In this document: in pieces, positions 11,888-62,281 of the stretch
Layout: every line of letters starts with the position of its first letter
How positions within the stretch are numbered: the stretch's first letter is position 1
From: Bacteroidota bacterium
GTDB lineage: Bacteria; Bacteroidota; Bacteroidia; Chitinophagales; Chitinophagaceae
Assembly (NCBI GenBank): GCA_030706735.1
Contig: JAUZNZ010000004.1
Coordinates: forward strand, 124,001-188,000
DNA length: 64,000 bases
Reading direction: 5' to 3'
Translations under genes and position numbers: made by a program
Notes under the pieces: model-generated
What the model was told of the DNA's origin: nothing
What the model saw: the letters and a program-made list of their open reading frames with translations, nothing else
The model's database searches: none

Positions 11888-13345
11888 ATGGAATCCTTTA
11901 CATTGCCCATTCTCATCGTGGGGGCGGGGGCATCCGGCCTCATGGCCGCATACGACCTCACCGCCGCATACGACCTCACCGCCGCCCGCGGATCGTCTTC
12001 CGCCAATAAGGAGGTCATTGTGCTGGAGGCGGGACCCGAACCGGGCGGCCGCATCCGAACCCTGAAGGGCGCGCCCTTTCTTCACCCCGTCGAGGCCGGC
12101 GCGGAATTCATTCATGGGAATATGCCGATCACGCTCGGCTTGTTGCACGAGGCCGGCATCGAATACCGTGCCGTAAAAGGAAACATGTGCGAATTCCGCA
12201 ACGGAAAATGGGTACGCGGCCCCCAATCTTCCGCCGATCAATCCTCCGCCGATCAATCTTCCGCCGATCAATCTTCCGCCGGCCAATCCTCCCGCGTCTG
12301 GGACGAATTGATGCAAAAGATGGAACAACTGGAGCAGGATATGCCCCTGGCCTCGTTCCTGGAGTCACTGACGGAAGAAAAATTCAGGGAGGCAGGCAGA
12401 TCCATGCGTCGTTTCGCGGAAGGCTTCGATCTGGCCGATCCGAAAACCGTCAGTACGCGCTATTTGTACAGGGAATGGCAACAGGAGGACGAAGACCAAT
12501 ATCGTATCGTCGGCGGCTATGCGCGATTGATCGATCATCTCATCGAGGTCTGCAAGCGCAGAGGTTGCCGGATCCATACCTCCGCACAGGTGACCGACCT
12601 GCACTGGCAGCAGGGTAGGGTGCAGATCCGAACCGCCGATGGCCGGGAGTTTACCGGCAGCAAGGCGATCATTACGGTCTCTCCGGCCATATTGCAGCTC
12701 ACCGCCCCCAACGCCTCCGCTGCCCCCAACGCCTCCGCTGCCCCCAACGCCTCCGCTGCCCCCACCATACCCACCGCGCCCGCCGCCATCCGCTTCTCTC
12801 CTTCATTGGACGATCACATCCGCGCCGCCGGAAAACTGGGCTTCGGCACGGTCACCAAAATATTCCTTCAGTTCACAGAGGCATTCTGGAACGGGACCGA
12901 CGATCAGCTCGGATTCATTTTCAGTGACAAGGTCGTGCCCACCTGGTGGACCCAATGCCCCGATCCCTATCCGCTCCTTACCGGTTGGGTCCCCGGCGCG
13001 GTGATGAAGGAATGCAAGCCCATGACCACAGAGGAATGGATCAGCCACAGTCTTTCCTCACTCGCTTCGATGTTCGGAATGGACGTGACGGCATTGAGGG
13101 GACGCCTGACGGCCGCCACCGTGCTGGATTGGACCGCCGAGCCCTTTATCCGGGGCGGCTATAGTTTCGACACCCTCGAAAGTGTCGCAGCGAAATATGT
13201 TCTCAACCAGCCGATTGAAAATACGCTATACTTTGGAGGGGAAGCCTTATACGAGGGCCCCGCGCCCGGAACCGTCGAGGCCGCACTCGCCAACGGAAGG
13301 TCCGTGGCCGCAAAGATCCTGCTTGATTGGAGTCTTCATTCTTAA
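11888..13345 (+). CDS. FAD-dependent amine oxidase (NAD(P)-binding Rossmann) with three in-frame repeat inserts
   Basis: 485 aa flavoprotein of the monoamine oxidase/polyamine oxidase group. The dinucleotide-binding motif is VGAGASG at residues 11-17, followed by the FAD ribose glutamate (VLEAGPEPGGRIRT); the C-terminal FAD-binding segment is LYFGGEALYEGPAPGTVEAA. Three DNA tandem arrays interrupt otherwise conserved sequence: AAYDLT repeated at residues 20-31, SSADQ repeated four times at 114-133, and PNASA(A) repeated three times at 273-290. All keep frame. The first array sits immediately after the FAD motif, which is unexpected. The substrate is unknown. No signal peptide. Confidence 0.9.
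   Translation: MESFTLPILIVGAGASGLMAAYDLTAAYDLTAARGSSSANKEVIVLEAGPEPGGRIRTLKGAPFLHPVEAGAEFIHGNMPITLGLLHEAGIEYRAVKGNMCEFRNGKWVRGPQSSADQSSADQSSADQSSAGQSSRVWDELMQKMEQLEQDMPLASFLESLTEEKFREAGRSMRRFAEGFDLADPKTVSTRYLYREWQQEDEDQYRIVGGYARLIDHLIEVCKRRGCRIHTSAQVTDLHWQQGRVQIRTADGREFTGSKAIITVSPAILQLTAPNASAAPNASAAPNASAAPTIPTAPAAIRFSPSLDDHIRAAGKLGFGTVTKIFLQFTEAFWNGTDDQLGFIFSDKVVPTWWTQCPDPYPLLTGWVPGAVMKECKPMTTEEWISHSLSSLASMFGMDVTALRGRLTAATVLDWTAEPFIRGGYSFDTLESVAAKYVLNQPIENTLYFGGEALYEGPAPGTVEAALANGRSVAAKILLDWSLHS
11945..11980 (+). repeat. 18-bp tandem duplication inside the FAD oxidase
   Basis: GCCGCATACGACCTCACC occurs twice without a mismatch, followed by a five-base partial third copy. It encodes AAYDLT twice, directly behind the FAD-binding glycine motif. 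Confidence 0.95.
12227..12286 (+). repeat. 15-bp tandem array (four copies) inside the FAD oxidase
   Basis: Unit TCTTCCGCCGATCAA, four copies with one silent T/C change and a changed last copy (GGCCAA). Encodes SSADQ SSADQ SSADQ SSAGQ. Confidence 0.95.
12704..12757 (+). repeat. 18-bp tandem array (three copies) inside the FAD oxidase
   Basis: Unit GCCCCCAACGCCTCCGCT, three identical copies plus a partial fourth. Encodes APNASA three times, in frame. Confidence 0.95.
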
Positions 13346-13380
13346 CCCACCTCCTTAACCCACCTCCTTAACCCACCTCC
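13342..13380. repeat. 13-bp tandem repeat carrying stop codons of both convergent genes
   Basis: TTAACCCACCTCC occurs three times with no mismatch. The first copy holds the TAA stop of the FAD oxidase (plus strand); the third copy holds the TTA (minus-strand TAA) stop and last codons (EVG) of the cbpM-like gene. The TTAA core supplies a stop on both strands. Confidence 0.95.
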
Positions 13381-13697
13381 GCATCGGTGATGGGATGGCG
13401 CCCTCCGGATTCATAACGTTGCAACCTGTTGCGCAAACGGCGCATCTCCTCCTGCATGTCCCGGACACGCCATAGTATATGCGCGAGGGCCTCGATCCCC
13501 GCCGGATTGATATCCAGGTCATCGTGCCAGCGCACGAACTTCTCCAGTTCCTCCAGTTCATCGGCAGGCAAAAAAGCAGTGCCCTCGACCATGGTCATAT
13601 GGATCAGTCCGGACTGATGCAGCGTCCGGATAAAGGTCATCTCCACCCGGTGACCCGCGCAAAACTCGCTGACCGCGATGAGATCATCTGTTTGCAT
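13368..13697 (-). CDS. cbpM: Chaperone modulator CbpM-like (MerR-type HTH) protein
   Basis: 109 aa. The N-terminal half has the MerR-like fold typical of CbpM (DDLIAVSEFCAGHRVEMTFI, then a short turn and HQSGLI), and the C-terminal half is a helical segment (ILWRVRDMQEEMRRLRNRL) that is probably a coiled coil. CbpM binds the J domain of CbpA and inhibits its co-chaperone activity. The gene lies 10 nt downstream of cbpA, the standard arrangement. Its last three codons and stop fall in a 13-bp tandem repeat. Confidence 0.85.
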   Translation of the reverse strand: MQTDDLIAVSEFCAGHRVEMTFIRTLHQSGLIHMTMVEGTAFLPADELEELEKFVRWHDDLDINPAGIEALAHILWRVRDMQEEMRRLRNRLQRYESGGRHPITDAEVG

Positions 13698-13707
13698 AAG
13701 ACTGGTT

Positions 13708-14673
13708 TTAGTGTTTCGCGGCGAGTTTCGCCAGCTCCCTGAATAATTCCTTTTCTTTTTCCGAAAGGTTGGAAGGCGTTCGCAGGTCCAGCGTAACGTA
13801 AAGATCGCCGAACTGCCCTTCGCTCTTGTATACCGGGAACCCCTTTCCCTTCAATCGCATGATCGTCCCGTTCTGCGTTTCGGGTTTTACTTTCAGTTTG
13901 ACCTTGCCATCCAGCGTATCCACCATGATCTCTCCTCCAAGCACCGCCGTATAAATATCGATCGGAGCCTTCGAATGCAGGTCGTTCCCGTCCCTTTTCC
14001 AACGCGGATCTTCCCCGATAACGAAGTGGATGTATAAGTCGCCCGACGGTCCCCCGTTCGATCCGGGTCCCCCGTGCCCTTTCAACTTGATGATCTGACC
14101 ATTTTCCACCCCGGCGGGTACCGTGATGCGTATATTCTTGCCATTGATGGTGAGCGTTTGCTGATGGGTCTTCGACGCATCCATCAACGATAAATGGTAC
14201 TCGGCTTGCTGATCCTGGCCCCTGAACCTTGCCTGGCCGCCTGCGCGCCCGGCGCCGCCTGATCGCGCGCTGCCTCCTGCACGTCCCCCGCCCCCGAATA
14301 AGGATTCAAAGAATTCGGAGAAGCCTCCTTCGCCAAACTCCGCGTCCCCGAAATCGCCTCCGCCAAAACCTCCTCCCATCCCGCCAAAGCCGCCCTGCCC
14401 GCCTCGTCCGCCACCCTGCGATTGCCTGGCTTTTTCAAAGGCATCGGCATGCTGCCAATCCTTTCCGTATTGATCGTATTTCTTTCGCTTTTCCGGATCG
14501 CTCAGGACCTCATTCGCTTCATTGATCTGCTGAAATTTCCGATTCGCCTCCTTGTCGTTCGGATTGAGGTCGGGATGCAGCTTCCGCGCCAGTTTACGGT
14601 ACGCATTCTTGATCTCGTCCGCACTGGCGTCTTTCTTTATGCCCAATACCTTATAGTAATCGATGAAATCCAT
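13708..14673 (-). CDS. cbpA: DnaJ-type co-chaperone CbpA
   Basis: 321 aa type II J protein. J domain at residues about 4-70 with HPD at 33-35; a Gly/Phe-rich region at about 85-145 (rich in GGGFGG and GGAGRAGG runs); two C-terminal substrate-binding domains from about 155, including the region around [17 protein letters not shown]. The cysteine-rich zinc finger of DnaJ is absent, which marks it as CbpA/DjlA-type rather than DnaJ. It stimulates DnaK ATPase and holds unfolded protein in the cytosol. The modulator gene cbpM follows after 10 nt. Confidence 0.94.
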
Positions 14674-14704
14674 GCCTTGCTCTTTTTTGCAAATCTACGA
14701 CCAT

Positions 14705-14756
14705 TTCCTAACCCACCCCCATTGCTTGCGCGCCCCATTCCTAACCCACCCCATTG
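14705..14756. repeat. Imperfect ~20-bp direct repeat at the end of the histidine kinase gene
   Basis: TTCCTAACCCACCCCCATTG (14705-14724) recurs at 14738-14756 with one C fewer. The second copy contains the stop and last codons (NGVG) of the histidine kinase gene; the first copy is a duplicate of that gene end placed in the gap before cbpA. Confidence 0.85.
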
Positions 14757-16354
14757 ATGGTAAAGAAGAACCGGCTGCCTTCCCCCAGCGTGGAGTCTAC
14801 CCAGATCCTTCCCCCATGCAGCTCGGCGATCTTTTTGCAATGCGCAAGCCCGATCCCCGATCCTCCGTATTGTGAGCGCGTATGCAGGCGCTGAAAAATG
14901 ATGAATATCCGATCCAGGAACTGCTTTTCTATGCCGATGCCATTGTCGGCAATGCAAAATTGCCACAGACTGCCCTGCCTCCCGGCACGCACCGTGATCT
15001 CGGGGGGTACGCCGGGGCGATGGAATTTTATGGAATTGGTGATGAGGTTTTGGAATAATAATTTCAATTCGGTCGGATAGCCTTGCAACATGGGAAGCCT
15101 GTCGGCTTTTATGGAGGCCCCGCATTCCCTGATCATCTTGTCCAGGTCCGCCAGCACTTCTTGCAGCAGTTGGTTGCAATCGACGTCGCGGGCCTCCTTT
15201 TCCCGGCCGATCCGCGAGTATTCCAGCAGATCCTCGATCAGGACCTTGCTGCGTTCGGACGCCTGGACGATGTAATCGAGATATTTTTCCGCATTTCCGT
15301 CCAGCTTGCCCCGATATTGCTTTTGCAATAGTTCGACAAAGCCCGAAATGGTACGCAACGGCTCCTGCAGATCGTGGGACGCGACATACGCGAATTGTTC
15401 GATCTCCTTGCTCTTGCTCTCTATTTCGGCCGTCCGGAGCGCAACCTTTCTCTCCAGTGAAGCATTCACTTCGCGGTTCTCTTTCCCAAGCCGTTCCAGG
15501 TCTTCCGCCATCTCATTAAAGTCGCCGGCAAGCTTGCCGATCTCATCGAGAGAGAAGATCTTGGCCTTGCGCGAGAAATCTCCCCTTCTCACAGCCCGGG
15601 CCGATTCCAGGATCTCATTGATCGACTTCTGGATACCCCGGCTCACCGTAATGGCAAGGGTTAACCCGGTACATTCTACGGTCAGCGCCACGATGAACAA
15701 TAGTTTGAGGATGACATTCTCGAGCCAGCGCGATCCCTCGCCGAGCGCAAAGGAAAATTCATCTTCGGACAGGGTAAGCCGGACATTCACGGGATCGATC
15801 TTGCGCAGGATGGCATTGATCCGCTCTTGCGAAGGGGAGGGCGACGTGATCTCCGCATGCAATTCCTCGCCGATAGGCTCGAATTCGCCGATCACTTCAT
15901 CGGCCTTGGTCCAGGCCTCAATGGCCCGGTGAATATAGAAATTGCTATGAAACCGCCGGAATAGCTTGATCATCCCATCGACATCCTCCTTCGGAACACG
16001 GCCTTCGAGGAAGCCTTCCCTGGCGATCTCCATATCCGGTTGATCCTTGCTCAACTCCAATCTTGTCCGGTGATCCCCTTGCGGGACCTTCATGAAATCC
16101 CGGAATTTCCGGTAGTCGGCCTCCTCGCGGGTAAGACCATATTTCAGGAGTTGGTAAATGGCATCCTTTTGTGCCTTGGACCAAAGGCCCTCCCCGCCCA
16201 CATAGGCCCGCACCGAAGACAACGTATTGATGGAGAAGAATAGCACCATCAGCTCGATGGCGATCAGCAGGGCCATGATGCCGACGGTGAAATACAGTTT
16301 TTTTGCGATGGAAACGTTCTTGAGCCGCCGGAAGAAGGGAGGTCTTTTTTTCAT
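14741..16354 (-). CDS. Membrane sensor histidine kinase (HAMP, HisKA, HATPase_c)
   Basis: 537 aa. TM1 at about 21-41, a periplasmic helical sensor of roughly 165 residues, TM2 at about 216-238, a HAMP linker (about 238-292), a coiled-coil, the phospho-acceptor His327 in ASHDLQEPLRT, and an ATPase domain with N box NLITNSIKFH, DNGIGIE and GGSGIGLAHCKKI. The HisKA sequence belongs to the phytochrome-like subgroup common in Bacteroidota. No response regulator gene is adjacent, so it is an orphan kinase. The stimulus is unknown. The C-terminal stop region is duplicated in the downstream spacer. Confidence 0.93.
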   Translation of the reverse strand: MKKRPPFFRRLKNVSIAKKLYFTVGIMALLIAIELMVLFFSINTLSSVRAYVGGEGLWSKAQKDAIYQLLKYGLTREEADYRKFRDFMKVPQGDHRTRLELSKDQPDMEIAREGFLEGRVPKEDVDGMIKLFRRFHSNFYIHRAIEAWTKADEVIGEFEPIGEELHAEITSPSPSQERINAILRKIDPVNVRLTLSEDEFSFALGEGSRWLENVILKLLFIVALTVECTGLTLAITVSRGIQKSINEILESARAVRRGDFSRKAKIFSLDEIGKLAGDFNEMAEDLERLGKENREVNASLERKVALRTAEIESKSKEIEQFAYVASHDLQEPLRTISGFVELLQKQYRGKLDGNAEKYLDYIVQASERSKVLIEDLLEYSRIGREKEARDVDCNQLLQEVLADLDKMIRECGASIKADRLPMLQGYPTELKLLFQNLITNSIKFHRPGVPPEITVRAGRQGSLWQFCIADNGIGIEKQFLDRIFIIFQRLHTRSQYGGSGIGLAHCKKIAELHGGRIWVDSTLGEGSRFFFTINGVG

Positions 16355-16461
16355 AGTAAGGATACCAAGTTACACAAGTTGGGTAAAATAGCAAGGGCCG
16401 GCCGCATTCGCGGCCGGCCCTGGTCTCCATGATCCGGGGTCCGATGACACTCACCAAAAGG

Positions 16462-16638
16462 TTATTGAAGGGCCCGCTTCTTCTCCGTCAGCAGGTACAC
16501 GCAAGTGACCATCGACAGGTAGGCGGTAACCGTGAGCAACGACGAAATATTATAATCCTTCAGAGAAAAGAAGTGAAAACTTACTAATCCCGTCAGCGCG
16601 ATGAGCATCAACATCAGTATGGTAATTGCCGTTTTCAT
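16462..16638 (-). CDS. Small two-helix membrane protein, 58 aa
   Basis: Short ORF from the ATG at 16638 (MKTAITILMLMLIALTGLVS) to a TAA at 16462. It has a hydrophobic helix at about residues 4-22, a short polar turn (FFSLKDYNISS), a second hydrophobic stretch at about 33-48 and a basic C-terminus (TEKKRALQ). Length, amphipathic layout and position in an otherwise empty 420-nt gap suggest a real small protein. No family recognised. Confidence 0.5.
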   Translation of the reverse strand: MKTAITILMLMLIALTGLVSFHFFSLKDYNISSLLTVTAYLSMVTCVYLLTEKKRALQ

Positions 16639-16737
16639 AAAATGCTTTTTAAAGTGATTTAATGTAGTTCCAAAAATAAGACCCGCGCCGGGCGCCGAAG
16701 TTTATTAAGGAAATCCTAAAGCGCTTGTGGCTCGCTG

Positions 16738-16768: not shown

Positions 16769-16778
16769 ACATACGCAA

Positions 16779-19412: not shown

Positions 19413-20003
19413 ATGGAAAAAGACCCCAAAAAAGAAGATTCGGCTAACGCCCGGCCCGACCCGACCCGGCCCAACCCGGCCAGGCCCAACCCGCCCAGAC
19501 CCCTTCCGCCGCAGGCGGCCACGACCGCCAATCCCGTCATTCCCGTCGCACTCGATGAAAAGGACAAGGCGATCCTCCGGCTGCTGCAGGAGAACGGCAA
19601 GATGACGGTCCGAGAAGTCGCCGCCCAGGTGCACCTCAGCACCACGCCCGTCCACGACCGGATCAAACGCATGGAGGACGAGGGGGTCATCATCCGTTAC
19701 GCCGCCCTCGTGGACCACGCCCGGGTACGGAAAGGACTGATGGCCATTTGCTACGTTTCCCTGAAAGAACATAACAAGCGCTCCGGGGCCCGCTTCATCA
19801 AGGCCATGCACGAATTGCCCGAAGTGATCGAATGCTTCATCATCTCGGGAGAGTTTGATTTCATGCTCAAGGTCGTGGCCGACTCCATGGACGCGTATTA
19901 CGATTTCCACGTCAACAAGCTGGGCCAGGTGGAGAATATCGGACAGGTCCAAAGTACCTTCGTCATGGGCGCCGTCAAACAAACCTTCCCCCAGATCGGA
20001 TAG
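19413..20003 (+). CDS. Lrp/AsnC family transcriptional regulator with Pro-rich N-terminal extension
   Basis: 196 aa. Typical family members are about 150 aa; the extra ~45 residues are an N-terminal extension rich in Pro, Arg, Asn and Ala, built of four 15-bp DNA repeats (ARPDP, TRPNP, ARPNP, PRPLP; 19449-19508). The HTH domain then begins at about residue 46 (LDEKDKAILRLLQENGKMTV...TPVHDRIKRMEDEG split over residues 46-90), and the RAM/ligand domain occupies about 105-185. Divergent from ahcY with three helically phased repeats between, so autoregulation or control of ahcY is likely but inferred. Confidence 0.92.
   Translation: MEKDPKKEDSANARPDPTRPNPARPNPPRPLPPQAATTANPVIPVALDEKDKAILRLLQENGKMTVREVAAQVHLSTTPVHDRIKRMEDEGVIIRYAALVDHARVRKGLMAICYVSLKEHNKRSGARFIKAMHELPEVIECFIISGEFDFMLKVVADSMDAYYDFHVNKLGQVENIGQVQSTFVMGAVKQTFPQIG
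19449..19508 (+). repeat. 15-bp imperfect tandem array in the Lrp gene
   Basis: Four units related to ACCCGGCCCAACCCG, with third-position and some amino-acid changes, encode (A/T/P)RP(D/N/L)P. More diverged than the arrays in the FAD oxidase. Confidence 0.85.
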
Positions 20004-34608: not shown

Positions 34609-34679
34609 GGTTTCGTGGCCGAGTGGCTAGGCAGAGCTCTGCAAAAGCTCCTACAGCAGTTCGAATCTGCTCGAAACCT
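34609..34679 (+). tRNA. tRNA-Cys (GCA)
   Basis: A complete cloverleaf: 7-bp acceptor stem GGTTTCG/CGAAACC, D arm, anticodon stem GAGCT/AGCTC around CTGCAAA with anticodon GCA, T arm AGCAG/CTGCT around TTCGAAT, discriminator U. The CCA end is not encoded. A Rho-independent terminator follows 22 nt later. Confidence 0.95.
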
Positions 34680-42580: not shown

Positions 42581-43480
42581 ATGAAAATATCGGCTCATTC
42601 GTATGTTCGCAATGGCCTCAGGTATAACTACCCCTTTATCGAATCCATTCGTTCGGTGCTGCCCATCGTCGATGAGTTTGTCATGGTGGTCGGGGATTCG
42701 GATGACGGCACCCGGGAGGCCATTGAGGCGATAGGGGATAGCCGGATCAGGATCGTGGATACCATCTGGGATGAGAAGCTGCGCACCGCCGGCCGCATCT
42801 TCGCTTTGCAGGCCAATACAGGCCTGGATCAGGTGACGGGGGACTGGGCTTTTCATATACAGGCCGACGAAGTCGTCCATGAGGACGACCTGCCCCTGAT
42901 CAAAGCAGCGATGGAAAAACACTTCGCCGATCCGCGTGTCGAAGGGTTCCTGTTCCGCTTCCTCAATTTTTTCGGGGACTACAGGCACTACGGACCCAGC
43001 CGCCGCTTCCACCAGCACGAAATACGCATCACCCGCAACGACCCGAAGGTTCGCTCTTACCGTGATTCCCAGGGCTTCCGGATCTTCGAACATCCGGAAA
43101 AACAATGGGAGGAGAAAGGCCGCAAGCTGCACGTCATTTCCCTTCCGGCCCGTATCTTTCACTATAGCCATGTCAAGAATCCCCTGATGCAGGTTAGGAA
43201 AAGGGCCGCCTTCGTGTCGCGATACCACTCCGATGAAAAGGTGCAGGAATACCTGAAGGCAAATGAAGGCTTCAATTACCAGGATTATGACTATCTGAAG
43301 GTCTTCCACGGTACGCACCCCGCCGTCATGCGGGATTTTATTGCGGCGCAGGACTGGGAGTTCAACTACGACCCCTCCCGAAATGATATGAACCTGAAAG
43401 AAAAAACGATGCGATGGCTGGAGCGCCTCACGGGCAGGCAATTTTTTATCTATAAGAATTATAAGATCCTGAAGAAGTAG
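42581..43480 (+). CDS. Family 2-like glycosyltransferase
   Basis: 299 aa with no membrane segment. The N-terminal ISAHSYVRNGLRYNYPFIES and VDEFVMVVGDSDDGTREAIE match the first strand-helix units of GT-A glycosyltransferases, with the nucleotide-sugar aspartates in VGDSDDG and the metal-site region in WAFHIQADEVVHEDD. The acceptor is unknown. The C-terminus (about 200-299) is a helical tail. It overlaps the convergent ispE by 22 nt. Confidence 0.85.
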   Translation: MKISAHSYVRNGLRYNYPFIESIRSVLPIVDEFVMVVGDSDDGTREAIEAIGDSRIRIVDTIWDEKLRTAGRIFALQANTGLDQVTGDWAFHIQADEVVHEDDLPLIKAAMEKHFADPRVEGFLFRFLNFFGDYRHYGPSRRFHQHEIRITRNDPKVRSYRDSQGFRIFEHPEKQWEEKGRKLHVISLPARIFHYSHVKNPLMQVRKRAAFVSRYHSDEKVQEYLKANEGFNYQDYDYLKVFHGTHPAVMRDFIAAQDWEFNYDPSRNDMNLKEKTMRWLERLTGRQFFIYKNYKILKK

Positions 43481-44370
43481 CCGGGGAATAGCGCGGCCCC
43501 GGGATCTGGCGCCCGATCCTTCAGTCGTTCCGTGTCCTCCTTCCGGAACAGGCCATAAAATGCGGACCCGCTCCCCGTCATGCTTGCATATAATGCACCG
43601 GCCTCATACAGCCGGTCCTTGATCCCTTGCAGTTCGGGGTACCTGGCGCAGGTCCATGCCTCAAAGTCATTCACCAGCCGGCCCTTCCAGCTTTCCACCG
43701 GTCCGGCCACGATCTCTCCGATCCCCGCCCCAACTCCGATCCCCGCAGCCCCAACTCCGGCCGCCGCCCCAACCCCGGCCGCATCCTGCGCTCCACCCAA
43801 GCCGCCTTCGCCCCCGCCCTCGCGGAGCCCGGCAAACGCCTCCGCGGTGCTGATCGCCAGACCCGGATGGACGATCACAAAGGCATATCCCGACAGATCC
43901 AGGGAGATCGGCTCGAGCTCCTCACCCCGCCCCCTGGCGATGCAGGGCGTACCATAAATGAAGAATGGGCAATCGCTTCCTAACTGCAGGGCATAACCGG
44001 CCAGCTTCTCCCGATCGAGCCCCAGCCGGAATTCCTCGTTCAGCGCGTTCAGCAGGCTTGCGCCGTCTGACGAACCCCCACCCAGTCCCGCACCCATGGG
44101 GATCTGCTTGTGCAAATAAATGTGGACCGGCGGCAATGCGGGGAAGTCTTTCTTTAGCAGGGCATAGGCGCGCAGACAGAGGTTGGCGCCCGGATCGCCG
44201 GCGATAGGCAGGCCGGATGGCGAAAAGGCAGGGGCCTCCGACCTGACGATCTCCAATACGTCGCAGACCGCCAGGGGCCAGAATACCGTCTCCAGGTCAT
44301 GATAACCGTCTGTTCTCCGGCCCAAAACACGCAACCCGAGATTGATCTTACATGGGGGAAACACTACCAT
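43459..44370 (-). CDS. ispE: 4-(cytidine 5'-diphospho)-2-C-methyl-D-erythritol kinase with repeat insert
   Basis: 303 aa GHMP kinase of the MEP isoprenoid pathway. The ATP loop PMGAGLGGGSSDGASLLNAL, the N-terminal CKINLGLRVLGRRTDGYHDL and the C-terminal MTGSGSAFYGLF motifs are intact. Between the VHPGLAISTAEAFAGL segment and the WKGRLVNDFE segment lies an extra ~30-residue Gly/Ala/Val/Ile insert encoded by imperfect DNA repeats (43719-43784), absent from the usual family layout. It lies 5 nt downstream of the bifunctional nuclease gene. Confidence 0.94.
   Translation of the reverse strand: MVVFPPCKINLGLRVLGRRTDGYHDLETVFWPLAVCDVLEIVRSEAPAFSPSGLPIAGDPGANLCLRAYALLKKDFPALPPVHIYLHKQIPMGAGLGGGSSDGASLLNALNEEFRLGLDREKLAGYALQLGSDCPFFIYGTPCIARGRGEELEPISLDLSGYAFVIVHPGLAISTAEAFAGLREGGGEGGLGGAQDAAGVGAAAGVGAAGIGVGAGIGEIVAGPVESWKGRLVNDFEAWTCARYPELQGIKDRLYEAGALYASMTGSGSAFYGLFRKEDTERLKDRAPDPGAALFPGYFFRIL
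43719..43784 (-). repeat. Imperfect tandem repeats inside ispE
   Basis: On the minus strand the core GCCGGAGTTGGGGC recurs, with G/A changes, three to four times in units of 15 to 21 bp, encoding AAGVGA, AAGVGA, AGIGVGAG. All lengths are multiples of three. Confidence 0.8.
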
Positions 44371-47204: not shown

Positions 47205-48659
47205 ATGGACCTGCTTCAATCTTTCAAGGATTTCATTGCCGCTGAAGACCTTTTCTCACCCGGCGAACTGCTCCTGCTGGCCGTCAGCGGCGGCCTGGAC
47301 TCCGTCGCGCTCTGCGAACTCTGCCACCAGGCAGGATTCCCGTTCGCGATGGCGCACGCCCATTTCGGGCTCCGCGGCGAAGAGAGCGATCGTGATGAAC
47401 GTTTTGTCCGTGGCCTGTCCGCTCACTACCAGGTCCCCCTGGCCACGCGCCGGTTCGACACGCCCGGCTATGCGGAGGAACGGAAGGTCTCCATTCAGGT
47501 GGCCGCCCGCGAACTCCGTTACGCCTGGTTCAACGAACTGATCGGATCCGGCGCCCCACATCGCGACCCCTCCCGCACCCCTCATCCCGACCTCCCCGGC
47601 TCCGGGAGACCATCCCGCATCCTGACGGCCCACCATCTCGACGACAATATCGAAACCCTCCTGATGAATTTTTTCAAGGGAACCGGAATGGCCGGCCTGC
47701 ACGGCATCCTTCCCCGCCAGGGCGCGCTGGTGCGTCCGCTCTTGTTCGCCCGCAAGGAAGACCTGCTGCGCTTCGCAACGGATCGGCGGCTTGATTGGGT
47801 GGAGGATAGTTCCAACCGATCGGATACCTATACCCGTAACTATCTGCGCCGCCAGATCATCCCGGCCCTCGAACAGGCCTGGCCCGGCGCGATGAATAAC
47901 CTCGCCGCCAATATCGGGCGCTTCCGTGAGGCTGAATCGCTGTATCGCCAAGCCCTGGACCGGCATAAAAGCAAGCTGCTCGAGATCCGGGGCGACGAAA
48001 CCTGGATTCCCGTATTGAAGTTCAAACAGGCCGTCCCCCTCCATACGATCTGCTATGAGATCATTCGTGAATTCGGTTTTTCCCCCCGCCAGGTCGACGA
48101 CGTGCTGCACTTGCTCGACAGCGGATCGGGTAAACGGGTGCATTCTCCGTCGCATCGCATCCTCCGGGACCGTAACTGGCTTATTGTTTCCCCGAACCAG
48201 GCCGTGGCAGGCAATCATGTCCTCATCGAATCGCTGTCCGGTACCGTTCATGCGGCAAACATGGAATTGAGGTTCTCTCTGCAGCCTGTTTCCGATCGCC
48301 CGGCTACCCCGACTACCCCGGCCACCCCTCCTTCCGCGTCCCCCTCCGCACAGCGAGCCGCACCGCCGCACACCACGCCGCCACACACCGCGCTCCTCGA
48401 CGCCTCCCTGATCCGCATCCCCCTTCTCCTCCGGAAATGGCGCCAGGGGGATTACTTTTATCCCCTGGGCATGCGAAAAAAGAAGAAGCTCGGCCGGTTC
48501 TTCATAGACAACAAGTTCTCCCTGGTCGATAAAGAAAAGGCATGGGTGATCGAAATGGATAAGAAGGTTATCTGGGTGGTCGGCCATCGCATCGACGACC
48601 GCTTCAAGGTCACGCCCGCCACGCGGCAGATCCTAAAAATCGAATCGGGGGTGAGTTAA
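47205..48659 (+). CDS. tilS: tRNA(Ile)-lysidine synthase with two repeat-encoded inserts
   Basis: 484 aa. The PP-loop SGGLDS (residues 28-33) activates tRNA-Ile2 C34 with ATP before lysine addition, changing AUG to AUA decoding; TAHHLDDNIETLLMNFFKG and EDSSNRSDTYTRNYLRRQI are further hallmarks, and the C-terminal domain has NKFSLVDKEKAWVIEM. Two Pro-rich inserts, at about residues 113-130 and 365-400, interrupt the domains; the second is made of 9-bp and 15-bp DNA repeats. The 3' end overlaps the convergent rhomboid gene by 27 nt. Confidence 0.95.
   Translation: MDLLQSFKDFIAAEDLFSPGELLLLAVSGGLDSVALCELCHQAGFPFAMAHAHFGLRGEESDRDERFVRGLSAHYQVPLATRRFDTPGYAEERKVSIQVAARELRYAWFNELIGSGAPHRDPSRTPHPDLPGSGRPSRILTAHHLDDNIETLLMNFFKGTGMAGLHGILPRQGALVRPLLFARKEDLLRFATDRRLDWVEDSSNRSDTYTRNYLRRQIIPALEQAWPGAMNNLAANIGRFREAESLYRQALDRHKSKLLEIRGDETWIPVLKFKQAVPLHTICYEIIREFGFSPRQVDDVLHLLDSGSGKRVHSPSHRILRDRNWLIVSPNQAVAGNHVLIESLSGTVHAANMELRFSLQPVSDRPATPTTPATPPSASPSAQRAAPPHTTPPHTALLDASLIRIPLLLRKWRQGDYFYPLGMRKKKKLGRFFIDNKFSLVDKEKAWVIEMDKKVIWVVGHRIDDRFKVTPATRQILKIESGVS
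48303..48392 (+). repeat. Two short tandem arrays inside tilS
   Basis: 9-bp units GCTACCCCG, ACTACCCCG and GCCACCCCT at 48303-48329 (ATP, TTP, ATP), and 15-bp units CCGCCGCACACCACG and CCGCCACACACCGCG at 48363-48392 (PPHTT, PPHTA). All in frame. Confidence 0.8.
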
Positions 48660-55878: not shown

Positions 55879-58647
55879 ATGAGAGTCTTCGTCCTGCTGC
55901 TCGCCATTCTTTCCTTTTCTGCGTTCACCCGGTCATCGGCACAGGAGAAGACTACCCGCCTGATCACCGGGGACTTCCAGGGCTGGGATTTCGACGCCTT
56001 TGTTCGCATGGCCGAAGCGTCCACGCCATACCGGTTCTATTATAATTCCGCCCAACTCGACAGTGTTTGCATTTATCTCCATGTCGGGGAGCAACCTCTG
56101 GAAAAGGTGCTGGACCAGATCTTCGCGGGGACCGCTTTTCATTATGCCATCGTGGACCAGCGGGACGTTTTTGTCAGTAAGGGGCTGACGATCCGCACGG
56201 AACTTCCGCCAGGCTTCTTCGGTAATCAGGAGCCGCAGATGGCAGCGGAGGGGACGGCGCCCGTGAAGGATCTGACCTCGGACAAGCCCCTCAAGCAGGT
56301 CACTTCCGAAAACAAGCTTTATGAGATCGGCCGGAAGACCAACCATATCCTCCCGGGCGAAGGCGTCATCTCTGGAACCATACGCAATGCCCGCACAGGG
56401 GAACCCGTCGCAGGCGCAGCGGTCTATTCGGACAAGTCGGGCGCCGGCGGCGCGACCGATCAATATGGCTATTACTCGATCCGGCTCCCAAGGGGTCCCC
56501 ATATTATTAATGTGCAGGGCCTGGGTATGCGGGATGGCCGCTACCAGGTGGTGCTGTATTCGGACGGCAAACTCGATATCGACCTGCGCGAACAGGTCAC
56601 CACGCTTCGGGAAGTGGTCGTCTCGGCCGAGAAGACCGTCAATCTGCGCCGCGTACAGCTGGGCGTGGAGCACCTCGATATCAAGACGATCAAACAGGTG
56701 CCGACCGTCATGGGCGAGGCCGACGTCTTAAGGGTCGTGCTCACCCTTCCCGGAGTAAAGACGGCGGGGGAGGCCAGTACGGGCCTGAATGTCCGCGGAG
56801 GAGCGGCCGACGAGAACCTCATCCTCTTCAATGACGCGACGATCTATAATCCATCCCACTTCTTCGGCATGTTCTCGGCCTTCAACCCCGACGTCGTCAA
56901 GGATATCGAGCTCTATAAGAGCAGTATCCCCGCAAAATACGGCGGTCGCTCTTCCTCCGTGCTGGATATTACCAGCAGGGAAGGGAACAAGAAGAATTTC
57001 TCCGGCAGCGCCGGCATCGGCTTGCTTACCAGCCGGATCATGCTGGAGGGCCCGATCGTAAAAGACAAGACCTCCTTCATCCTTGGCGGCCGCACGACCT
57101 ATGCCAACTGGTTGCTTGGCGCCCTCCCGAAGCAGTATGATCATAGCCGCGGGAATTTCAACGACCTCGACCTTTCGATCAGCCATCAGATGAATGCGAA
57201 GAATACGTTCTATTTCACCGGCTATACCAGCAATGACCGCTTCAATCTGAACAACGACACGGTCTATAGTTACGGGAACCGGAATCTCTCGGCAAAATGG
57301 AAGCATGTGTTCAGCGATCGCCTCAATGGGACGCTCACGGCAGGGTATGACCGATATCAATACAAGGTGACCGGCTCGAATGTCCCCACTTCCGCATTTA
57401 CGCTTGGGTTCGATATTAACCAGTTCAATCTGAAAACGGATTTTACATGGTATCTCAGCGCCAAACATACGATCACCTTCGGCGCCGGATCGATCCGCTA
57501 TTTGCTGCATCCGGGGTCTTATTTGCCGACCGGGAAAGCGTCCCTGGTCGTGCCGGATATCGTCGCCTCCGAACAGGCCCTGGAGAGCGCCGCCTATATC
57601 AGCGACCGGTACAATATTACGCCCGCTCTCTCGCTCGACGCCGGCCTGCGCTATTCCTTATATGATTACCTCGGCCCGCAAACCATCAACCTCTACGCGC
57701 CGGGTCTTCCGGTGCTGACGGTGAACCAGACCGGCACGAAGGAATATGGAAAGAACAAGGTCGTCAATACCTACCAGGGTCCGGAGTATCGGTTCTCCGT
57801 TCGCTATGCGATCACCAACAGCTTCTCGGTAAAAGCCGGTTATAATTCGCTGCGCCAGTATATCCATATGTTGTCCAATACGACCTCGATGGCCCCCACG
57901 GATATCTGGAAATTGAGCGATCCGCATATTCGCCCCGAACTGGGCGACCAGGTCTCCTTTGGCGTATACAAGAATTTGCACGCCAATACGATCGAAACTT
58001 CGGTCGAAGTGTACTATAAGCGGCTGCACGACTATCTCGATTATCGCTCGGGAGCAACGCTCATCATGAACCATCACATCGAAACGGATGTGCTCAATAC
58101 GAAAGGCAAAGCCTACGGCGTAGAGGTCATGATCAAGAGGCTCACAGGCAAGCTCAACGGCTGGGTCAGCTATACCTGGTCGCGTACCTTGCTTAGAACC
58201 GATGATCCCACGGCAGGGGAAACCGTAAATAACGGAAATTATTATCCCTCCGACTTCGATCAACCCCACAATGTCAATCTCGTCGGCAATTTCCGGGTCA
58301 ACCACCGCTTCAGCGTTTCGCTGAACGCAGTATACAGCACCGGCCGGCCCATCACGCTGCCCATCGGACGATATTATTATGGCGGCTCCGTTCGCGTGAT
58401 CTATGCCGACCGCAATTCCTATCGCATCCCCGATTACTTCCGCACGGACTTTTCAATGAATATCGACGGAAATCATAAAGTGCATCAATGGACGCACAAT
58501 TCATGGACGATCGGGGTTTACAACCTGACAGGCAGGCATAATCCGTATTCGGTTTATTTTATTTCGGAGAACGGCGCAGTCAATGGATATAAGCTGTCCA
58601 TTTTCGGCAGCGCGATCCCATTCGTGAACTTTAATATCCGGTTTTAA
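55879..58647 (+). CDS. TonB-dependent receptor with STN and CarboxypepD_reg domains
   Basis: 922 aa outer-membrane receptor. Signal peptide (1-20), STN domain (about 35-100: FVRMAEASTPYRFYYN...LEKVLDQIFAGTAF), carboxypeptidase regulatory-like domain (about 160-235: ISGTIRNARTGEPVAGAAVY), plug (about 260-375: NVRGGAADENLILFNDATIY) and a 22-strand barrel to the C-terminal NFNIRF. STN receptors usually signal as well as import, but no ECF/anti-sigma pair is adjacent. No SusD gene; the partner here is the DUF4249 gene 2 nt on. Ligand unknown. Confidence 0.93.
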   Translation: MRVFVLLLAILSFSAFTRSSAQEKTTRLITGDFQGWDFDAFVRMAEASTPYRFYYNSAQLDSVCIYLHVGEQPLEKVLDQIFAGTAFHYAIVDQRDVFVSKGLTIRTELPPGFFGNQEPQMAAEGTAPVKDLTSDKPLKQVTSENKLYEIGRKTNHILPGEGVISGTIRNARTGEPVAGAAVYSDKSGAGGATDQYGYYSIRLPRGPHIINVQGLGMRDGRYQVVLYSDGKLDIDLREQVTTLREVVVSAEKTVNLRRVQLGVEHLDIKTIKQVPTVMGEADVLRVVLTLPGVKTAGEASTGLNVRGGAADENLILFNDATIYNPSHFFGMFSAFNPDVVKDIELYKSSIPAKYGGRSSSVLDITSREGNKKNFSGSAGIGLLTSRIMLEGPIVKDKTSFILGGRTTYANWLLGALPKQYDHSRGNFNDLDLSISHQMNAKNTFYFTGYTSNDRFNLNNDTVYSYGNRNLSAKWKHVFSDRLNGTLTAGYDRYQYKVTGSNVPTSAFTLGFDINQFNLKTDFTWYLSAKHTITFGAGSIRYLLHPGSYLPTGKASLVVPDIVASEQALESAAYISDRYNITPALSLDAGLRYSLYDYLGPQTINLYAPGLPVLTVNQTGTKEYGKNKVVNTYQGPEYRFSVRYAITNSFSVKAGYNSLRQYIHMLSNTTSMAPTDIWKLSDPHIRPELGDQVSFGVYKNLHANTIETSVEVYYKRLHDYLDYRSGATLIMNHHIETDVLNTKGKAYGVEVMIKRLTGKLNGWVSYTWSRTLLRTDDPTAGETVNNGNYYPSDFDQPHNVNLVGNFRVNHRFSVSLNAVYSTGRPITLPIGRYYYGGSVRVIYADRNSYRIPDYFRTDFSMNIDGNHKVHQWTHNSWTIGVYNLTGRHNPYSVYFISENGAVNGYKLSIFGSAIPFVNFNIRF

Positions 58648-58649
58648 CG

Positions 58650-59795
58650 ATGAGAAGACTTTCGACCTTGACAAAAATAGTGATCTTGTTCATCACCCTT
58701 TCGGTGGCCTGCAAAGAGGCCTATGTGCCTCCGATCATCTCATCGAATAACCGCTATCTGGTCGTGGAAGGCTTTATTAATAATGGGGCGGACTCGACTC
58801 AATTCCACCTGACGCGTTCCTATAAGCTGGACGATTCCGCCAGCCTGCAACCGGAGCTGCATGCCATCCTGAACATCGAAGGCAAGGACAACAGCAGTTA
58901 TCCGCTCGTCGAATTGGGCAGTGGCTACTATGCGTGCCCGGGCCTGGCGCTGAACAACGCGATCAAATATCGTTTGCATATCCGTACCTCCGATGGCAAA
59001 CAATATCTCTCCGATTTCGTGGAGCTGAAGACCTCCCCGCCGATCGACAGCATCAGCTGGGTTCGTAACAACGATGGTCTGCAGATCTATTGCAATGCGC
59101 ACGACGATCAGGGAACCAGCCGTTATTACCGCTTCCAGTATGACGAAACCTGGCAGTTCAATGCCGTTTTCTACTCCGGACTGGAATATGTGCACGATTC
59201 GCTGAGGAACAGGGCGGTCAACAATATGTTCACCTGCTGGAAGACCGTGAGTTCGACGAATATCCTGCTTGCCTCGACAGCCAAGCTGTCCAAAGACGTC
59301 GTACAGTTTCCGGTCGTATTGGTGCCTTCCAATTCCTGGATGATCAGCATCAAATACAGCATTATCGTGAGACAATACGTATTGACCCCCGATGCATACG
59401 ACTTCTGGTCGAATCTGCAAAAGAACTCGGAACAGATCGGTTCGTTGTTCAGCCCCGAGCCCTTTCAGTCCAGGGGAAATATCCATTCCGTCAGCGATTC
59501 GAACGAGTTGGTGATCGGCTATGTCAGCGCCGGCACCATGCGTCAGCAGCGCATTTTCCTCACGCCATATGATATCCCGAATTGGATCTACGGAACCTAT
59601 GAGGATGGCTGTCATCTGATCTCGATCAAGAACGATCCGGATACGCTGCAACAATATCTTTCGGGTTTCGGTTATTTGCCCGTCGACTATGACCCCACGT
59701 CCGGAGGAGGCAAACCCAGAGTAGAAGTCACTTTTACCGTCTGCGCCGATTGCACCCAGATCGGTTCGAATACTAAACCCTATTTCTGGCCATGA
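58650..59795 (+). CDS. DUF4249 lipoprotein
   Basis: 381 aa. Signal with a lipobox-like TLSVAC-KEA. The NRYLVVEGFINNGADSTQFH and YRLHIRTSDGKQYLSDFVEL segments and YYRFQYDETWQF fit the DUF4249 family, which nearly always follows a TonB-dependent receptor in Bacteroidota and is thought to take a SusD-like, surface partner role; that role is inference. A cysteine pair CADC near the C-terminus is visible. Starts 2 nt after the receptor and ends in an ATGA overlap with the next gene. Confidence 0.9.
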   Translation: MRRLSTLTKIVILFITLSVACKEAYVPPIISSNNRYLVVEGFINNGADSTQFHLTRSYKLDDSASLQPELHAILNIEGKDNSSYPLVELGSGYYACPGLALNNAIKYRLHIRTSDGKQYLSDFVELKTSPPIDSISWVRNNDGLQIYCNAHDDQGTSRYYRFQYDETWQFNAVFYSGLEYVHDSLRNRAVNNMFTCWKTVSSTNILLASTAKLSKDVVQFPVVLVPSNSWMISIKYSIIVRQYVLTPDAYDFWSNLQKNSEQIGSLFSPEPFQSRGNIHSVSDSNELVIGYVSAGTMRQQRIFLTPYDIPNWIYGTYEDGCHLISIKNDPDTLQQYLSGFGYLPVDYDPTSGGGKPRVEVTFTVCADCTQIGSNTKPYFWP

Positions 59796-62281
59796 GAACG
59801 ATTTGCCTTTGCCTGTTATTTTGCCATTGTATGAACGGCTTGCTGGCGCAGACCGATGGTTCGGCTACGATCCGCTCGGAGTTCGACGCCTATCGCATGA
59901 AGGGCATGCAGGAAAAGCTTTTCGTGCACACCGACAAGACCGCCTACCTTGCCGGCGAGATCTGCTGGTTTAAATTGTATTGCCTTGACGGCACTTCGCA
60001 TCGCCCCCTGCCCATCAGCAAGCTGGCCTATGTGGATATCCTCGACAGGGACGACCGGTACCTGCTTCAGGGCAAGATCGCGCTCGATCAGGCGGAAGGA
60101 GAGGGTTCCTTTTACCTCCCGCTCACGCTCGCATCCGGCAATTATAAGCTTAGGGCCTACACGAACTGGATGAAGAATTTCGGCCCGGACTTTTTTTTCG
60201 AACAGCCCATCACCATCATCAACACGCTGAAGACGCTTCCCGCCCCCGCCCCTGCGCTCCCCTCATCCGCGCCCGCGTCCTCCTCATCCGTCCCAGCTTC
60301 CCCTTCATCCGCGCCCGCCGACAGCCTCTTCGAGATCTCCTTTTTCCCCGAAGGCGGCGACATGGTGGACGGTATCCGGTCAAAGGTCGCTTTCCGGGCT
60401 TCCGACCGGCAGGGTAGGGGCAAGGACTGCCAGGGCCTGATCGTGGATGAACGAAAGGATACGCTCGCGACCTTCCATTCGGGACGGGGCGGCCTGGGGC
60501 AGTTCTGGTTTACTCCCACGGGCGGCCATCACTACGAGGCCATCGTCCGCTTCCCGCTAGCTGCATCCCCCCAATCGGCCGCATCCCCCCAATCGACCTC
60601 GTCGTCCCAATCAGCCTCGTCGCCCTACCTGATAAAGGCCTTGCCCCCGGTTCGCAGCGAGGGGTATACCATGCACGTCGCAGCATCCACGGGCCGGCGA
60701 CTGACCATTACCGTGCACGCGAAAGGTCCGGCCTCGCCGGAACTCTATCTATTTGGCCGGACCGGACAATCGCGGCCCTTCGTCCGCAAAGGGCAGCTGA
60801 CAAAGGATAGTACCGAATTTGTTCTGGACAAGGACAGCCTGGGCGATGGAATAACTCAACTGACGATCCTGGACGCCTCGCTCCGGCCAGTGAGCGAGCG
60901 CCTCTATTTTAAAAGGCCCGCACAGCCTCTTGCCATTGCCTTGCAAACAGACAAGGACCGCTATGACCGGCGAAACAGGGTCACCCTGTCCGTCTCGGTG
61001 CCCGACTCCACGGCAGCCAGCCTTTCCCTGGCCGTCTATCGGCTGGACTCGCTCGGACAGCCGCCCGCGCCCGATATTCATGCGTATCTATGGCTGACAT
61101 CGGACCTGAAAGGCAGGATCGATTCCGTGGAACGGTATTTTACCTTGCAGGGCGAAGAGGCCGACCTCGCCTTCGACGACCTCATGCTTACCCACGGATG
61201 GCGACGGTTTCACTGGGAGTCCATTCATCGGATGGCCAATCGTCAGTCGTCGCTTCCCAATCCGCCGGAATTCAGCGGACAGATCATAACGGGCAGACTG
61301 ACCGACATACGAACCGGCGAACCCCTGGCCAACCGATATGCTTCCCTTTCCGTCCCCGGAGTGAACTACAAATTCCAATACGCCAGGACCGACACGGCCG
61401 GCCGGTTATTTTTCGACATCAGGGACTATTTTGGAACGACGGGGATCGTCCTGCATTCGGGCAATAATGCCGACAGTCCTTGCAAAGTGGAGATGTTTAG
61501 CCCGTTCAGCGAGCAATTTGGGGGCGATCGCCTGCTGCCATTCGGCCTGTCGCAGGAGCAGGCGGGCGTCCTGACCAGGCGCAGTCTCGGGATGCAGGTG
61601 CAAAATATCTATACAGGCGACAGCATGCGTCAATTTCGGGGATCGATAACCGATACCCTGCATTTCTTCGGAAGGCCATATCGTGCCTATATGCTGGACG
61701 ACTATACGCGTTTTACGACGATGGAAGAGGTGCTGAGGGAATATGTTCAGGAGATCGGCGTGAACCGGCCGCACGGGAAATTGCATGTACTCATGGAAGA
61801 CGTATTGCGCAAGGAGTTCTTCAACGACGACAACACCCTGGTGCTGCTCGACGGCGTTCCCGTCCCGGACGATAAGATATTTAATTACGACCCGCTCAAG
61901 GTAAGACGGCTGGAGGTCGTGCCCATGGGCTACTTCCTGGGTCCCTCCGCTTTCAGCGGCATCGCCAGCTTCACTACCTATAAAGGGAATTACGAAGGCC
62001 TGGAACTCGACAGGCATTCCGTCTTCGTGGATTACGAGGGGATGCAATTCAAACGGGAGTTCTATTCGCCCGCCTATGAAACGCCCGAACAGGCAGCCAC
62101 GCATCTGCCGGACATTCGGGACCTCATGTTCTGGTCGCCGGATATCCACGCCGACGCCCGGGGGAAGACCCAGCTCCGCTTCTACACGTCGGACCTTCCG
62201 GGAAAGTACGGGATCGTCGTCCAGGGGATCACGCCTGACGGCCGAACCTGCACCGCCACCTCGGAGTTCGAGGTTGACTGA
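59792..62281 (+). CDS. MG2/plug-domain outer-membrane-associated protein with repeat inserts
   Basis: 829 aa. Signal peptide (1-19), then an MG2-like domain (EKLFVHTDKTAYLAGEICWF, about 42-62), a beta-sandwich region, a CarboxypepD_reg segment (GQIITGRLTDIRTGEPLANR) and a TonB-plug-like domain (TLVLLDGVPVPDDKIFNYDP) followed by DLPGKYGIVVQGITPDGR. Such proteins in Bacteroidota accompany TonB receptors; the function is unproven. Two in-frame repeat arrays (60263-60321, SSAPAS-type; 60560-60625, AASPQS-type) lie in interdomain linkers. Start overlaps the previous stop by 4 nt. Confidence 0.85.
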   Translation: MRTICLCLLFCHCMNGLLAQTDGSATIRSEFDAYRMKGMQEKLFVHTDKTAYLAGEICWFKLYCLDGTSHRPLPISKLAYVDILDRDDRYLLQGKIALDQAEGEGSFYLPLTLASGNYKLRAYTNWMKNFGPDFFFEQPITIINTLKTLPAPAPALPSSAPASSSSVPASPSSAPADSLFEISFFPEGGDMVDGIRSKVAFRASDRQGRGKDCQGLIVDERKDTLATFHSGRGGLGQFWFTPTGGHHYEAIVRFPLAASPQSAASPQSTSSSQSASSPYLIKALPPVRSEGYTMHVAASTGRRLTITVHAKGPASPELYLFGRTGQSRPFVRKGQLTKDSTEFVLDKDSLGDGITQLTILDASLRPVSERLYFKRPAQPLAIALQTDKDRYDRRNRVTLSVSVPDSTAASLSLAVYRLDSLGQPPAPDIHAYLWLTSDLKGRIDSVERYFTLQGEEADLAFDDLMLTHGWRRFHWESIHRMANRQSSLPNPPEFSGQIITGRLTDIRTGEPLANRYASLSVPGVNYKFQYARTDTAGRLFFDIRDYFGTTGIVLHSGNNADSPCKVEMFSPFSEQFGGDRLLPFGLSQEQAGVLTRRSLGMQVQNIYTGDSMRQFRGSITDTLHFFGRPYRAYMLDDYTRFTTMEEVLREYVQEIGVNRPHGKLHVLMEDVLRKEFFNDDNTLVLLDGVPVPDDKIFNYDPLKVRRLEVVPMGYFLGPSAFSGIASFTTYKGNYEGLELDRHSVFVDYEGMQFKREFYSPAYETPEQAATHLPDIRDLMFWSPDIHADARGKTQLRFYTSDLPGKYGIVVQGITPDGRTCTATSEFEVD
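60263..60321 (+). repeat. 21-bp tandem repeat in the MG2-like gene
   Basis: About 2.8 copies related to TCATCCGCGCCCGCGTCCTC, encoding SSAPASS, SSVPASP, SSAPAD in frame. Confidence 0.85.
60560..60625 (+). repeat. 18-bp tandem repeat in the MG2-like gene
   Basis: GCTGCATCCCCCCAATCG, GCCGCATCCCCCCAATCG and ACCTCGTCGTCCCAATCA plus a partial copy, encoding AASPQS, AASPQS, TSSSQS, ASSP. Confidence 0.9.

What the first reader, a model, noticed from the sequence alone, without database searches (positions are those of the whole stretch)
11945..60625. Widespread short in-frame tandem repeat inserts in unrelated conserved proteins
Seen: nine or more arrays of 9-, 15-, 18- or 21-bp units inside six genes (FAD oxidase, Lrp regulator, ispE, tilS, ClC channel, MG2-like protein), all encoding Pro/Ala/Ser/Thr/Gln/Gly-rich stretches. 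Intergenic arrays nearby have periods of 13, ~14, 16 and ~20 bp. In coding DNA every unit is a multiple of three, outside it is not: the pattern expected from a continuing tandem-duplication process pruned by frame selection. Some arrays are perfect (recent), others diverged (old). Inference: this lineage grows disordered linkers in housekeeping enzymes and may show strain-to-strain length variation.
Basis: partly seen in the sequence, partly recalled or inferred. Interest (0 to 1): 0.75.

Follow-up and report, generated by a model that had tools for sequence, protein, structure and literature searches.

The report
Repeat-built protein loops follow DNA strand
In this bacterium short stretches of DNA are copied head to tail inside ordinary genes, adding floppy loops to the proteins, and whether a loop is proline/serine-rich or glycine-rich follows the chromosome strand on which the gene lies, which points to a copying error rather than to a designed feature.

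Summary
Confirmed: the window holds 14 tandem arrays of TRF score >=45 (9 at >=60) against shuffle means of 1.05 and 0.20. Ten lie in five of the six named genes; the ClC array is not detected. In 758 kb of this genome 22 of 23 coding arrays (>=60) have units divisible by three, against 7 of 13 noncoding. Inserts are absent from the displayed orthologues (FAD oxidase, IspE) or sit at length-variable sites (TilS) and model as low-confidence loops. Outside the window coding density is only about twice the genus's; intergenic arrays are not in excess. New: GC-rich arrays shift, against their own flanks, towards G on the G-rich (presumed leading) strand in 39 of 44, whatever the gene's orientation. 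Peptides follow: Pro/Ser/Thr 41%, Gly/Val/Glu 8% in C-rich-strand genes; 14% and 39% on the other. Pooled relatives lack this polarity. Best reading: replication-polarised tandem duplication filtered by frame and loop tolerance. Closest known: Borg tandem repeats. Strain variation untested; replication direction unproved.

The parts
11930..11985 (+). 18-bp array, 3.1 copies, in flavin amine oxidase; AYDLTA repeated after the dinucleotide-binding motif
   Evidence: extra copy absent in 4 of 4 orthologues
12224..12292 (+). 15-bp array, 4.6 copies, QSSAD repeats, same gene
   Evidence: absent in 4 of 4 orthologues
12704..12764 (+). 18-bp perfect array, 3.4 copies, APNASA repeats, same gene
   Evidence: absent in 4 of 4 orthologues
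13341..13380 (.). 13-bp perfect array between the convergent oxidase gene and the next minus-strand gene; the stop codons of both lie in copies of the unit
   Evidence: stop positions read from the sequence
14705..14755 (.). 16-bp decayed array at the end of the minus-strand gene 14741-16354 and upstream of 13708-14673
19448..19502 (+). 15-bp array in the N-terminal extension of an Lrp/AsnC regulator (19413-20003)
   Evidence: the best genus hits begin at residues 24-47
43716..43777 (-). 18-bp array in ispE (43459-44370, minus strand); Gly/Ala/Val-rich 26-aa insert, residues about 186-212
   Evidence: pLDDT below 50 at 185-187 and 189-212 only
47547..47592 (+). 24-bp array in tilS (47205-48659), variable site 1
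   Evidence: pLDDT below 50 at residues 117-126
48299..48393 (+). 9-bp and 15-bp arrays in tilS, variable site 2, before the C-terminal domain
   Evidence: pLDDT below 50 at residues 369-388
60246..60312 (+). 21-bp array in MG2-like protein (59792-62281)
60569..60625 (+). 18-bp array in the same MG2-like protein
62283..62318 (.). 16-bp array just after the MG2-like gene

Best explanation
The arrays are the residue of a mutational process that copies short stretches head to tail (mostly 13-21 bases, mode 18 in genes), preferentially where the G-rich strand is the leading strand, so that the lagging-strand template exposed at the fork is G-rich and the new Okazaki strand C-rich. The proposed step is slipped-strand mispairing: the polymerase pauses on the G-rich template, the C-rich 3' end re-anneals one short direct repeat back, and a unit is added. 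Outside genes any unit length survives; inside genes only multiples of three, in loops that tolerate extra residues. Units then decay almost neutrally into low-complexity linkers. Because polarity is set by replication and not by the protein, genes on the C-rich strand gain Pro/Ser/Thr/Ala/Gln loops and genes on the G-rich strand gain Gly/Ala/Val loops. Shown here: tandem duplication, frame filter, private or length-variable insertion sites, predicted disorder (2 proteins), polarity in this genome and its amino-acid consequence. Inferred: that the G-rich strand is the leading one, slippage as the step, and that the process is still active.
For: Frame filter: coding 22 of 23 divisible by three, noncoding 7 of 13. 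Polarity: against their own +-300-bp flanks, arrays of score >=45 and GC >=0.6 shift towards G on the contig's G-rich strand in 39 of 44; genes on that strand 10 of 11, on the other 19 of 20, noncoding 10 of 13; random GC-rich segments 51% of 4000; 0 of 10,000 resamples reach the mean. Outside contig C35 17 of 21, p = 0.007; in C4 and C6, fetched after the idea was formed, 9 of 10 and 1 of 1 arrays of GC >=0.55. Peptides: Pro+Ser+Thr 41% / Gly+Val+Glu 8% (437 aa) against 14% / 39% (274 aa); all proteins on the two strands 17.2/18.6% and 16.4/20.0%; array-level p = 1.6e-6, without C35 p = 0.002. Templated origin: one AYDLTA copy lies where orthologues have native MAAYEL/MAAREL. Disorder. Near-neutral decay: mismatches between adjacent units at codon positions 1/2/3 are 29/41/50, 937 bases compared. 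Units of different arrays are unrelated: 9 of 1035 pairs score >=24 against a mean of 7.5 in shuffles.
Against: Polarity was noticed by eye (listings) before it was tested. High-GC, strongly skewed 45-bp windows outside arrays follow the contig skew in 370 of 444 (83%); by that measure arrays (30 of 31) exceed background only at p = 0.025. Weak arrays (score 36-44, GC >=0.6) 19 of 32; arrays of GC <0.6, 18 of 29. Contig-level rank correlation 0.52, p = 0.10, n = 11; sign agrees in 7 of 9 skewed contigs. Relatives (strand judged per locus, noisier): genus 45 of 84, other genera and families 7 of 16, family loci 50 of 107; their few arrays of GC >=0.6 give 8 of 11 in the genus, 1 of 1, and 0 of 7 in the family loci, i.e. 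the opposite sign there; G009, of equal GC, has 9 of 10. Replication direction rests on base skew: tRNA genes lie on the G-rich strand in 10 of 13 on skewed contigs, five of them one cluster on C5 far from the stretch where C5's skew was measured, and C35 gives 0 of 1; only 46% of gene bases are on the G-rich strand. MutS1 and MutL are full length, so no such repair defect explains it.
Confidence: 0.64

Rival explanations
1. Selection for useful disordered linkers: the host benefits from Pro/Ala/Ser/Thr-rich or Gly-rich loops and keeps the duplications that supply them.
For: Inserts sit in loops and between domains; TilS sites are long in several genus members; unit mismatches in GC-richer family loci are third-position biased, 5/6/29, i.e. 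the peptide is constrained there.
Against: Composition flips with the gene's strand, which protein-level selection cannot see; noncoding arrays share the polarity, 10 of 13; in this genome mismatches are spread 29/41/50; displayed orthologues do without the oxidase and IspE inserts.
Confidence: 0.13
2. Ascertainment plus composition: GC-rich skewed DNA is low in complexity, so repeats and PAST-rich stretches are expected, and the window is a chance-rich patch that a reader noticed.
For: Window density is 5.7 times that of the rest at >=60; low-complexity density equals that of family loci of 42-58% GC; contigs C1 and C2 have no array >=60 in 180 kb; G009 not clearly lower.
Against: Codon-preserving shuffles give 0.05 coding arrays >=60 per 100 kb against 4.4 in the 438-kb sample; without the window coding density is still 2.1-2.3 times the genus; perfect 3-copy 18-bp and 13-bp arrays exist.
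Confidence: 0.17
3. A mobile repeat family inserted in frame, as the Rickettsia palindromic elements are said to do (recalled).
For: Two noncoding arrays share TAACCCACC; insertion into conserved genes.
Against: Unit sequences of 46 arrays are no more alike than dinucleotide shuffles; unit lengths range from 9 to 36 bp; where alignable, a unit corresponds to native sequence.
Confidence: 0.03

Closest known systems
Tandem repeats of archaeal Borg elements (PMC9879509; outline, abstract, passages and sections 2.1.3-2.1.4 seen)
   Same: Many unrelated short arrays; ORF units all divisible by three, intergenic 14-38%; amino-acid repeats commonly disordered; units nearly all unique; a base bias seen in genic and intergenic arrays; reported as recent and independently formed
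   Different: Borg units are perfect and A-enriched, and Borgs carry nearly all genes of a replichore on one strand, so gene and replication strand coincide; here a bacterial chromosome, mostly imperfect C/G-polar arrays, genes on both strands, and linker composition that flips with the strand
In-frame small variable segments and minisatellites of bacterial genomes (PMC2884548; passages seen)
   Same: In-frame length changes inside genes, a few by tandem repeats
   Different: There 3-6% of genes vary within a species and minisatellites are 2-4% of the E. coli loci; here arrays lie in housekeeping enzymes and within-species variation is untested
Prokaryotic low-complexity regions (PMC6821194; passages seen)
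   Same: Gly, Ala, Pro, Ser, Gln enrichment; slippage named as one possible origin
   Different: The passages seen do not treat replication strand; this genome's low-complexity density is ordinary for family loci of 42-58% GC
Rickettsia palindromic elements (recalled; search listing only)
   Same: In-frame inserts in conserved genes
   Different: A repeated mobile sequence; here units are unrelated

Membership tests
Slippage-type coding minisatellites | Head-to-tail units, two or more copies, above chance | tested here: met
Slippage-type coding minisatellites | Coding units divisible by three, noncoding units not | tested here: met
   22 of 23 against 7 of 13
Slippage-type coding minisatellites | Copy number varies between strains (VNTR) | not testable with these tools
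   closest relative 63% identical in TilS
Borg-type tandem repeats | Perfect repeats | tested here: not met
   2 of 14 window arrays >=45 are 100% matched
Borg-type tandem repeats | Adenine enrichment of units | tested here: not met
   shift of A-T skew towards A on the G-rich strand 35 of 72, no bias; the bias found is G/C polarity
Borg-type tandem repeats | Base bias shared by genic and intergenic arrays | tested here: met
   genes 29 of 31, noncoding 10 of 13 at GC >=0.6
Borg-type tandem repeats | Repeats largely disordered in proteins | tested here: met
   2 of 2 proteins modelled, IspE and TilS; others not modelled
Mobile in-frame inserts (Rickettsia palindromic element type) | A common sequence shared by the inserts | tested here: not met
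Mismatch-repair-deficient hypermutator | mutS or mutL lost | tested here: not met
   own mutS1 2-839 of 840 and mutL 1-553 of 555, over curated cut-offs

The most novel reading that the evidence does not exclude
A chromosome-wide, replication-polarised duplication mutator writes new loops into a bacterium's proteins, so that the chemistry of a protein's newest segment (Pro/Ser/Thr-rich or Gly/Val-rich) is decided by which replication strand its gene happens to occupy; inverting a gene would change which kind of linker it evolves.
Probability: 0.5. Interest if true: 0.75.

Novelty: new variant of a known kind. Interest (0 to 1): 0.57.

Why it matters
Where new protein segments come from is an open question. 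Here the raw supply (strand-polar duplications) and the filter (frame, loop tolerance) can be told apart in one genome, because genes on both strands act as a built-in control. If it holds, replication strand becomes a predictor of linker composition and gene inversions become natural experiments. It also warns against reading Pro-rich or Gly-rich loops in such genomes as functional adaptations.

Tried and rejected
Mobile-element origin: rejected. Loss of mismatch repair: not supported, (33 genus genomes each, own included). A first test of polarity on raw array skew (44 of 47 at GC >=0.55 and absolute skew above 0.1) proved largely expected from background windows (370 of 444), so it was replaced by the flank-paired test. 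A weak cross-match of TilS to contig C10 (E = 7.5e-4) was looked at in the sequence; TRF lists no array there; not pursued. Independent support for replication direction was sought with rplB, tRNA and translation-GTPase genes: rplB lies on C2, whose skew is about zero; tRNAs give 10 of 13 on skewed contigs; the EF-Tu contig C7 could not be fetched. Literature: all ten searches used; two returned no paper, 48 listed the Borg paper, 72 the variable-segment paper, the rest looked unrelated or only loosely related from titles and abstract starts.

Rows dropped before counts: arrays of period below 7; arrays overlapping a better-scoring one; in densities, arrays 50-80% inside a called gene fall in neither class; in polarity tests, contigs (or, for relatives, loci) with absolute skew below 0.03, among them C1 and C2, and arrays with fewer than 8 G+C; contig C3 (masked, all N). 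Genes were called by a home-made codon-usage script, so coding and noncoding labels carry some error. The 80 family loci all lie around tilS and are no random sample. Same-genus samples are 26-120 kb per genome. In one search the alignment rows of 24 of 71 IspE orthologues were displayed; 58 family IspE proteins measured run from 227 to 309 aa (own 303), and the reason for the longest ones was not examined.

Full report
What is there. TRF lists 33 rows at score 30 or more in the window. At score 45 or more there are 14 separate arrays, at 60 or more nine; 20 shuffles that keep each gene's codons and each spacer's bases give means of 1.05 and 0.20. The ClC gene gives no TRF row. Three arrays are noncoding, with units of 13, 16 and 16 bp; one (10942) is of chance quality.

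The genome and its relatives. The window is G000:C35:124001-188000 of a 5.05-Mb draft in 100 contigs. I compared 758 kb of the own genome (window included), 15 same-genus genomes (1.05 Mb of coding DNA), seven genomes of other genera and families, and 80 named family loci around tilS.

Density. Coding arrays >=60 per 100 kb: own 3.38 (23), window 13.7 (8), own without window 2.41 (15), genus 1.04 (11), family loci 1.24 (16). Own without window against genus p = 0.041, against family p = 0.082; at >=50, p = 0.004 and 0.011. Noncoding at >=60: own 16.9, genus 19.3, family 24.0; at >=50 the own genome is lower than the genus (22.1 against 39.9, p = 0.03). So intergenic arrays are common in the relatives too, and the own genome stands out only by having more arrays in genes, about twofold outside the window. 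Contigs C1 and C2 have none >=60 in 180 kb. Segments rich in Pro/Ala/Ser/Thr/Gln/Gly/Asn: own 74 per 100,000 aa, genus 39 (130 in 334,567), family loci of 42-58% GC 72, of lower GC 22.

Frame filter. Coding units are divisible by three in 22 of 23 (>=60) and 38 of 42 (>=50); noncoding in 7 of 13 and 8 of 17. Unit length centres on 18 bp in genes (20 of 56 arrays >=45; 15 and 21 next, nine each); outside, 19 of 24 units are 13-21 bp.

Insertion sites. In the flavin oxidase the three inserts are absent from the four orthologues found, and one AYDLTA copy lies where they have native MAAYEL or MAAREL. In ispE a 26-aa insert is missing from all 24 orthologues displayed of 71 aligned (two have 3-4 extra residues there), and in the genus search the strong hits stop at residues 180-188 and resume at 213-224; two weak hits, probably paralogues, run across. 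In tilS, 29 relatives (23 of the same genus) show two sites of variable length, from none to more than 40 residues, filled with unrelated sequence; here the own genome is not alone. Models from alignments of 37 and 33 sequences put pLDDT below 50 at residues 185-187 and 189-212 of IspE and 117-126 and 369-388 of TilS, i.e. at the inserts, with mostly high confidence elsewhere (means 87.9 and 85.1).

Strand polarity. In contig C35 nearly all GC-rich arrays are C-rich on the plus strand in plus genes, minus genes and spacers; in contigs of opposite skew they tend to be G-rich. A raw comparison was not convincing, because skewed background windows follow the contig skew in 370 of 444. The paired test asks whether an array is more skewed than its own flanks. 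Arrays with GC >=0.6 move towards G on the contig's G-rich strand in 39 of 44; random GC-rich segments do so in 51% of 4000; no resample of 10,000 reaches the mean shift. It holds for genes on the G-rich strand (10 of 11), on the C-rich strand (19 of 20) and noncoding arrays (10 of 13), without the window (29 of 34) and without C35 (17 of 21). Arrays of lower GC (18 of 29) and weak arrays (19 of 32) do not show it clearly. Contigs C4 and C6, fetched after the idea arose, give 9 of 10 and 1 of 1 at GC >=0.55; contigs C30 and C80 go the other way. Relatives, with strand judged per locus: genus 45 of 84, other genera and families 7 of 16, family loci 50 of 107. Most of their arrays are AT-richer; those of GC >=0.6 give 8 of 11 in the genus but 0 of 7 in the family loci, so the polarity is not general. 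G009, of equal GC, has 9 of 10.

Consequence for proteins. Repeat peptides in C-rich-strand genes are 41% Pro/Ser/Thr and 8% Gly/Val/Glu (437 aa); in G-rich-strand genes 14% and 39% (274 aa); the proteins of the two strands as a whole hardly differ. Per array p = 1.6e-6; without the window 7.3e-5; without C35 0.0021. Low-complexity segments without arrays show the same tendency weakly (Pro minus Gly, p = 0.016; 86 and 49 segments). The ispE array, in the only minus-strand gene among the five, is the Gly/Ala/Val one. Exceptions include a Gly/Ser array on C30, a Lys/Asp-rich one on C4 and a Gly-poor one on C6.

Mechanism. Protein-level selection cannot produce a sign that flips with gene orientation and is shared by spacers, so the polarity is taken as mutational. 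By the usual rule (general knowledge, not proved here) the G-rich strand is leading; tRNA genes agree in 10 of 13, five of these being one cluster; the share of gene bases does not (46%). Slippage on a G-rich lagging template fits, as does the orientation dependence of repeat instability (recalled; search listing only). Units are unrelated between arrays, mutS and mutL are full length, and mismatches between units spread over codon positions 29/41/50, close to neutral.

Comparison. The Borg repeats are the nearest described case: ORF units all divisible by three, commonly disordered products, and a base bias in genic and intergenic arrays. They differ in being perfect, A-rich and on one-strand replichores. 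None of the ten searches made listed a paper whose title or abstract start links replication strand to the composition of repeat-born protein linkers; that is a statement about those listings only.

Verdict.

Noticed in passing
L122 13864-13975; L123 8475-8606; L125 12868-13012; L126 12899-13050 (genome G014): Noncoding tandem arrays of 7-21-bp units come in neighbouring pairs whose units look like reverse complements of each other, i.e. possible long hairpins built of tandem repeats.
   Followed up: no
window 13341-13380: The stop codons of two convergent genes both lie in copies of the same 13-bp unit (TTAA core), so the duplication lengthened the spacer without harming either gene.
   Followed up: partly
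G000 contigs C1 and C2 (L041, L156-L163): 180 kb with near-zero base skew, lower GC3 and no array of score 60 or more; C2 holds rplB.
   Followed up: partly
L117 8228-8254 (genome G026 tilS): A 7-bp array (3.9 copies), not divisible by three, lies inside tilS near the second variable site.
   Followed up: no
window 34609-34679 (G000:C35:158609-158679): A tRNA gene on the plus, C-rich strand, against the presumed leading direction.
   Followed up: no
L164 (G000:C3): The 1590-base contig reads with no A, C, G or T counted (masked); left out of counts.
   Followed up: no
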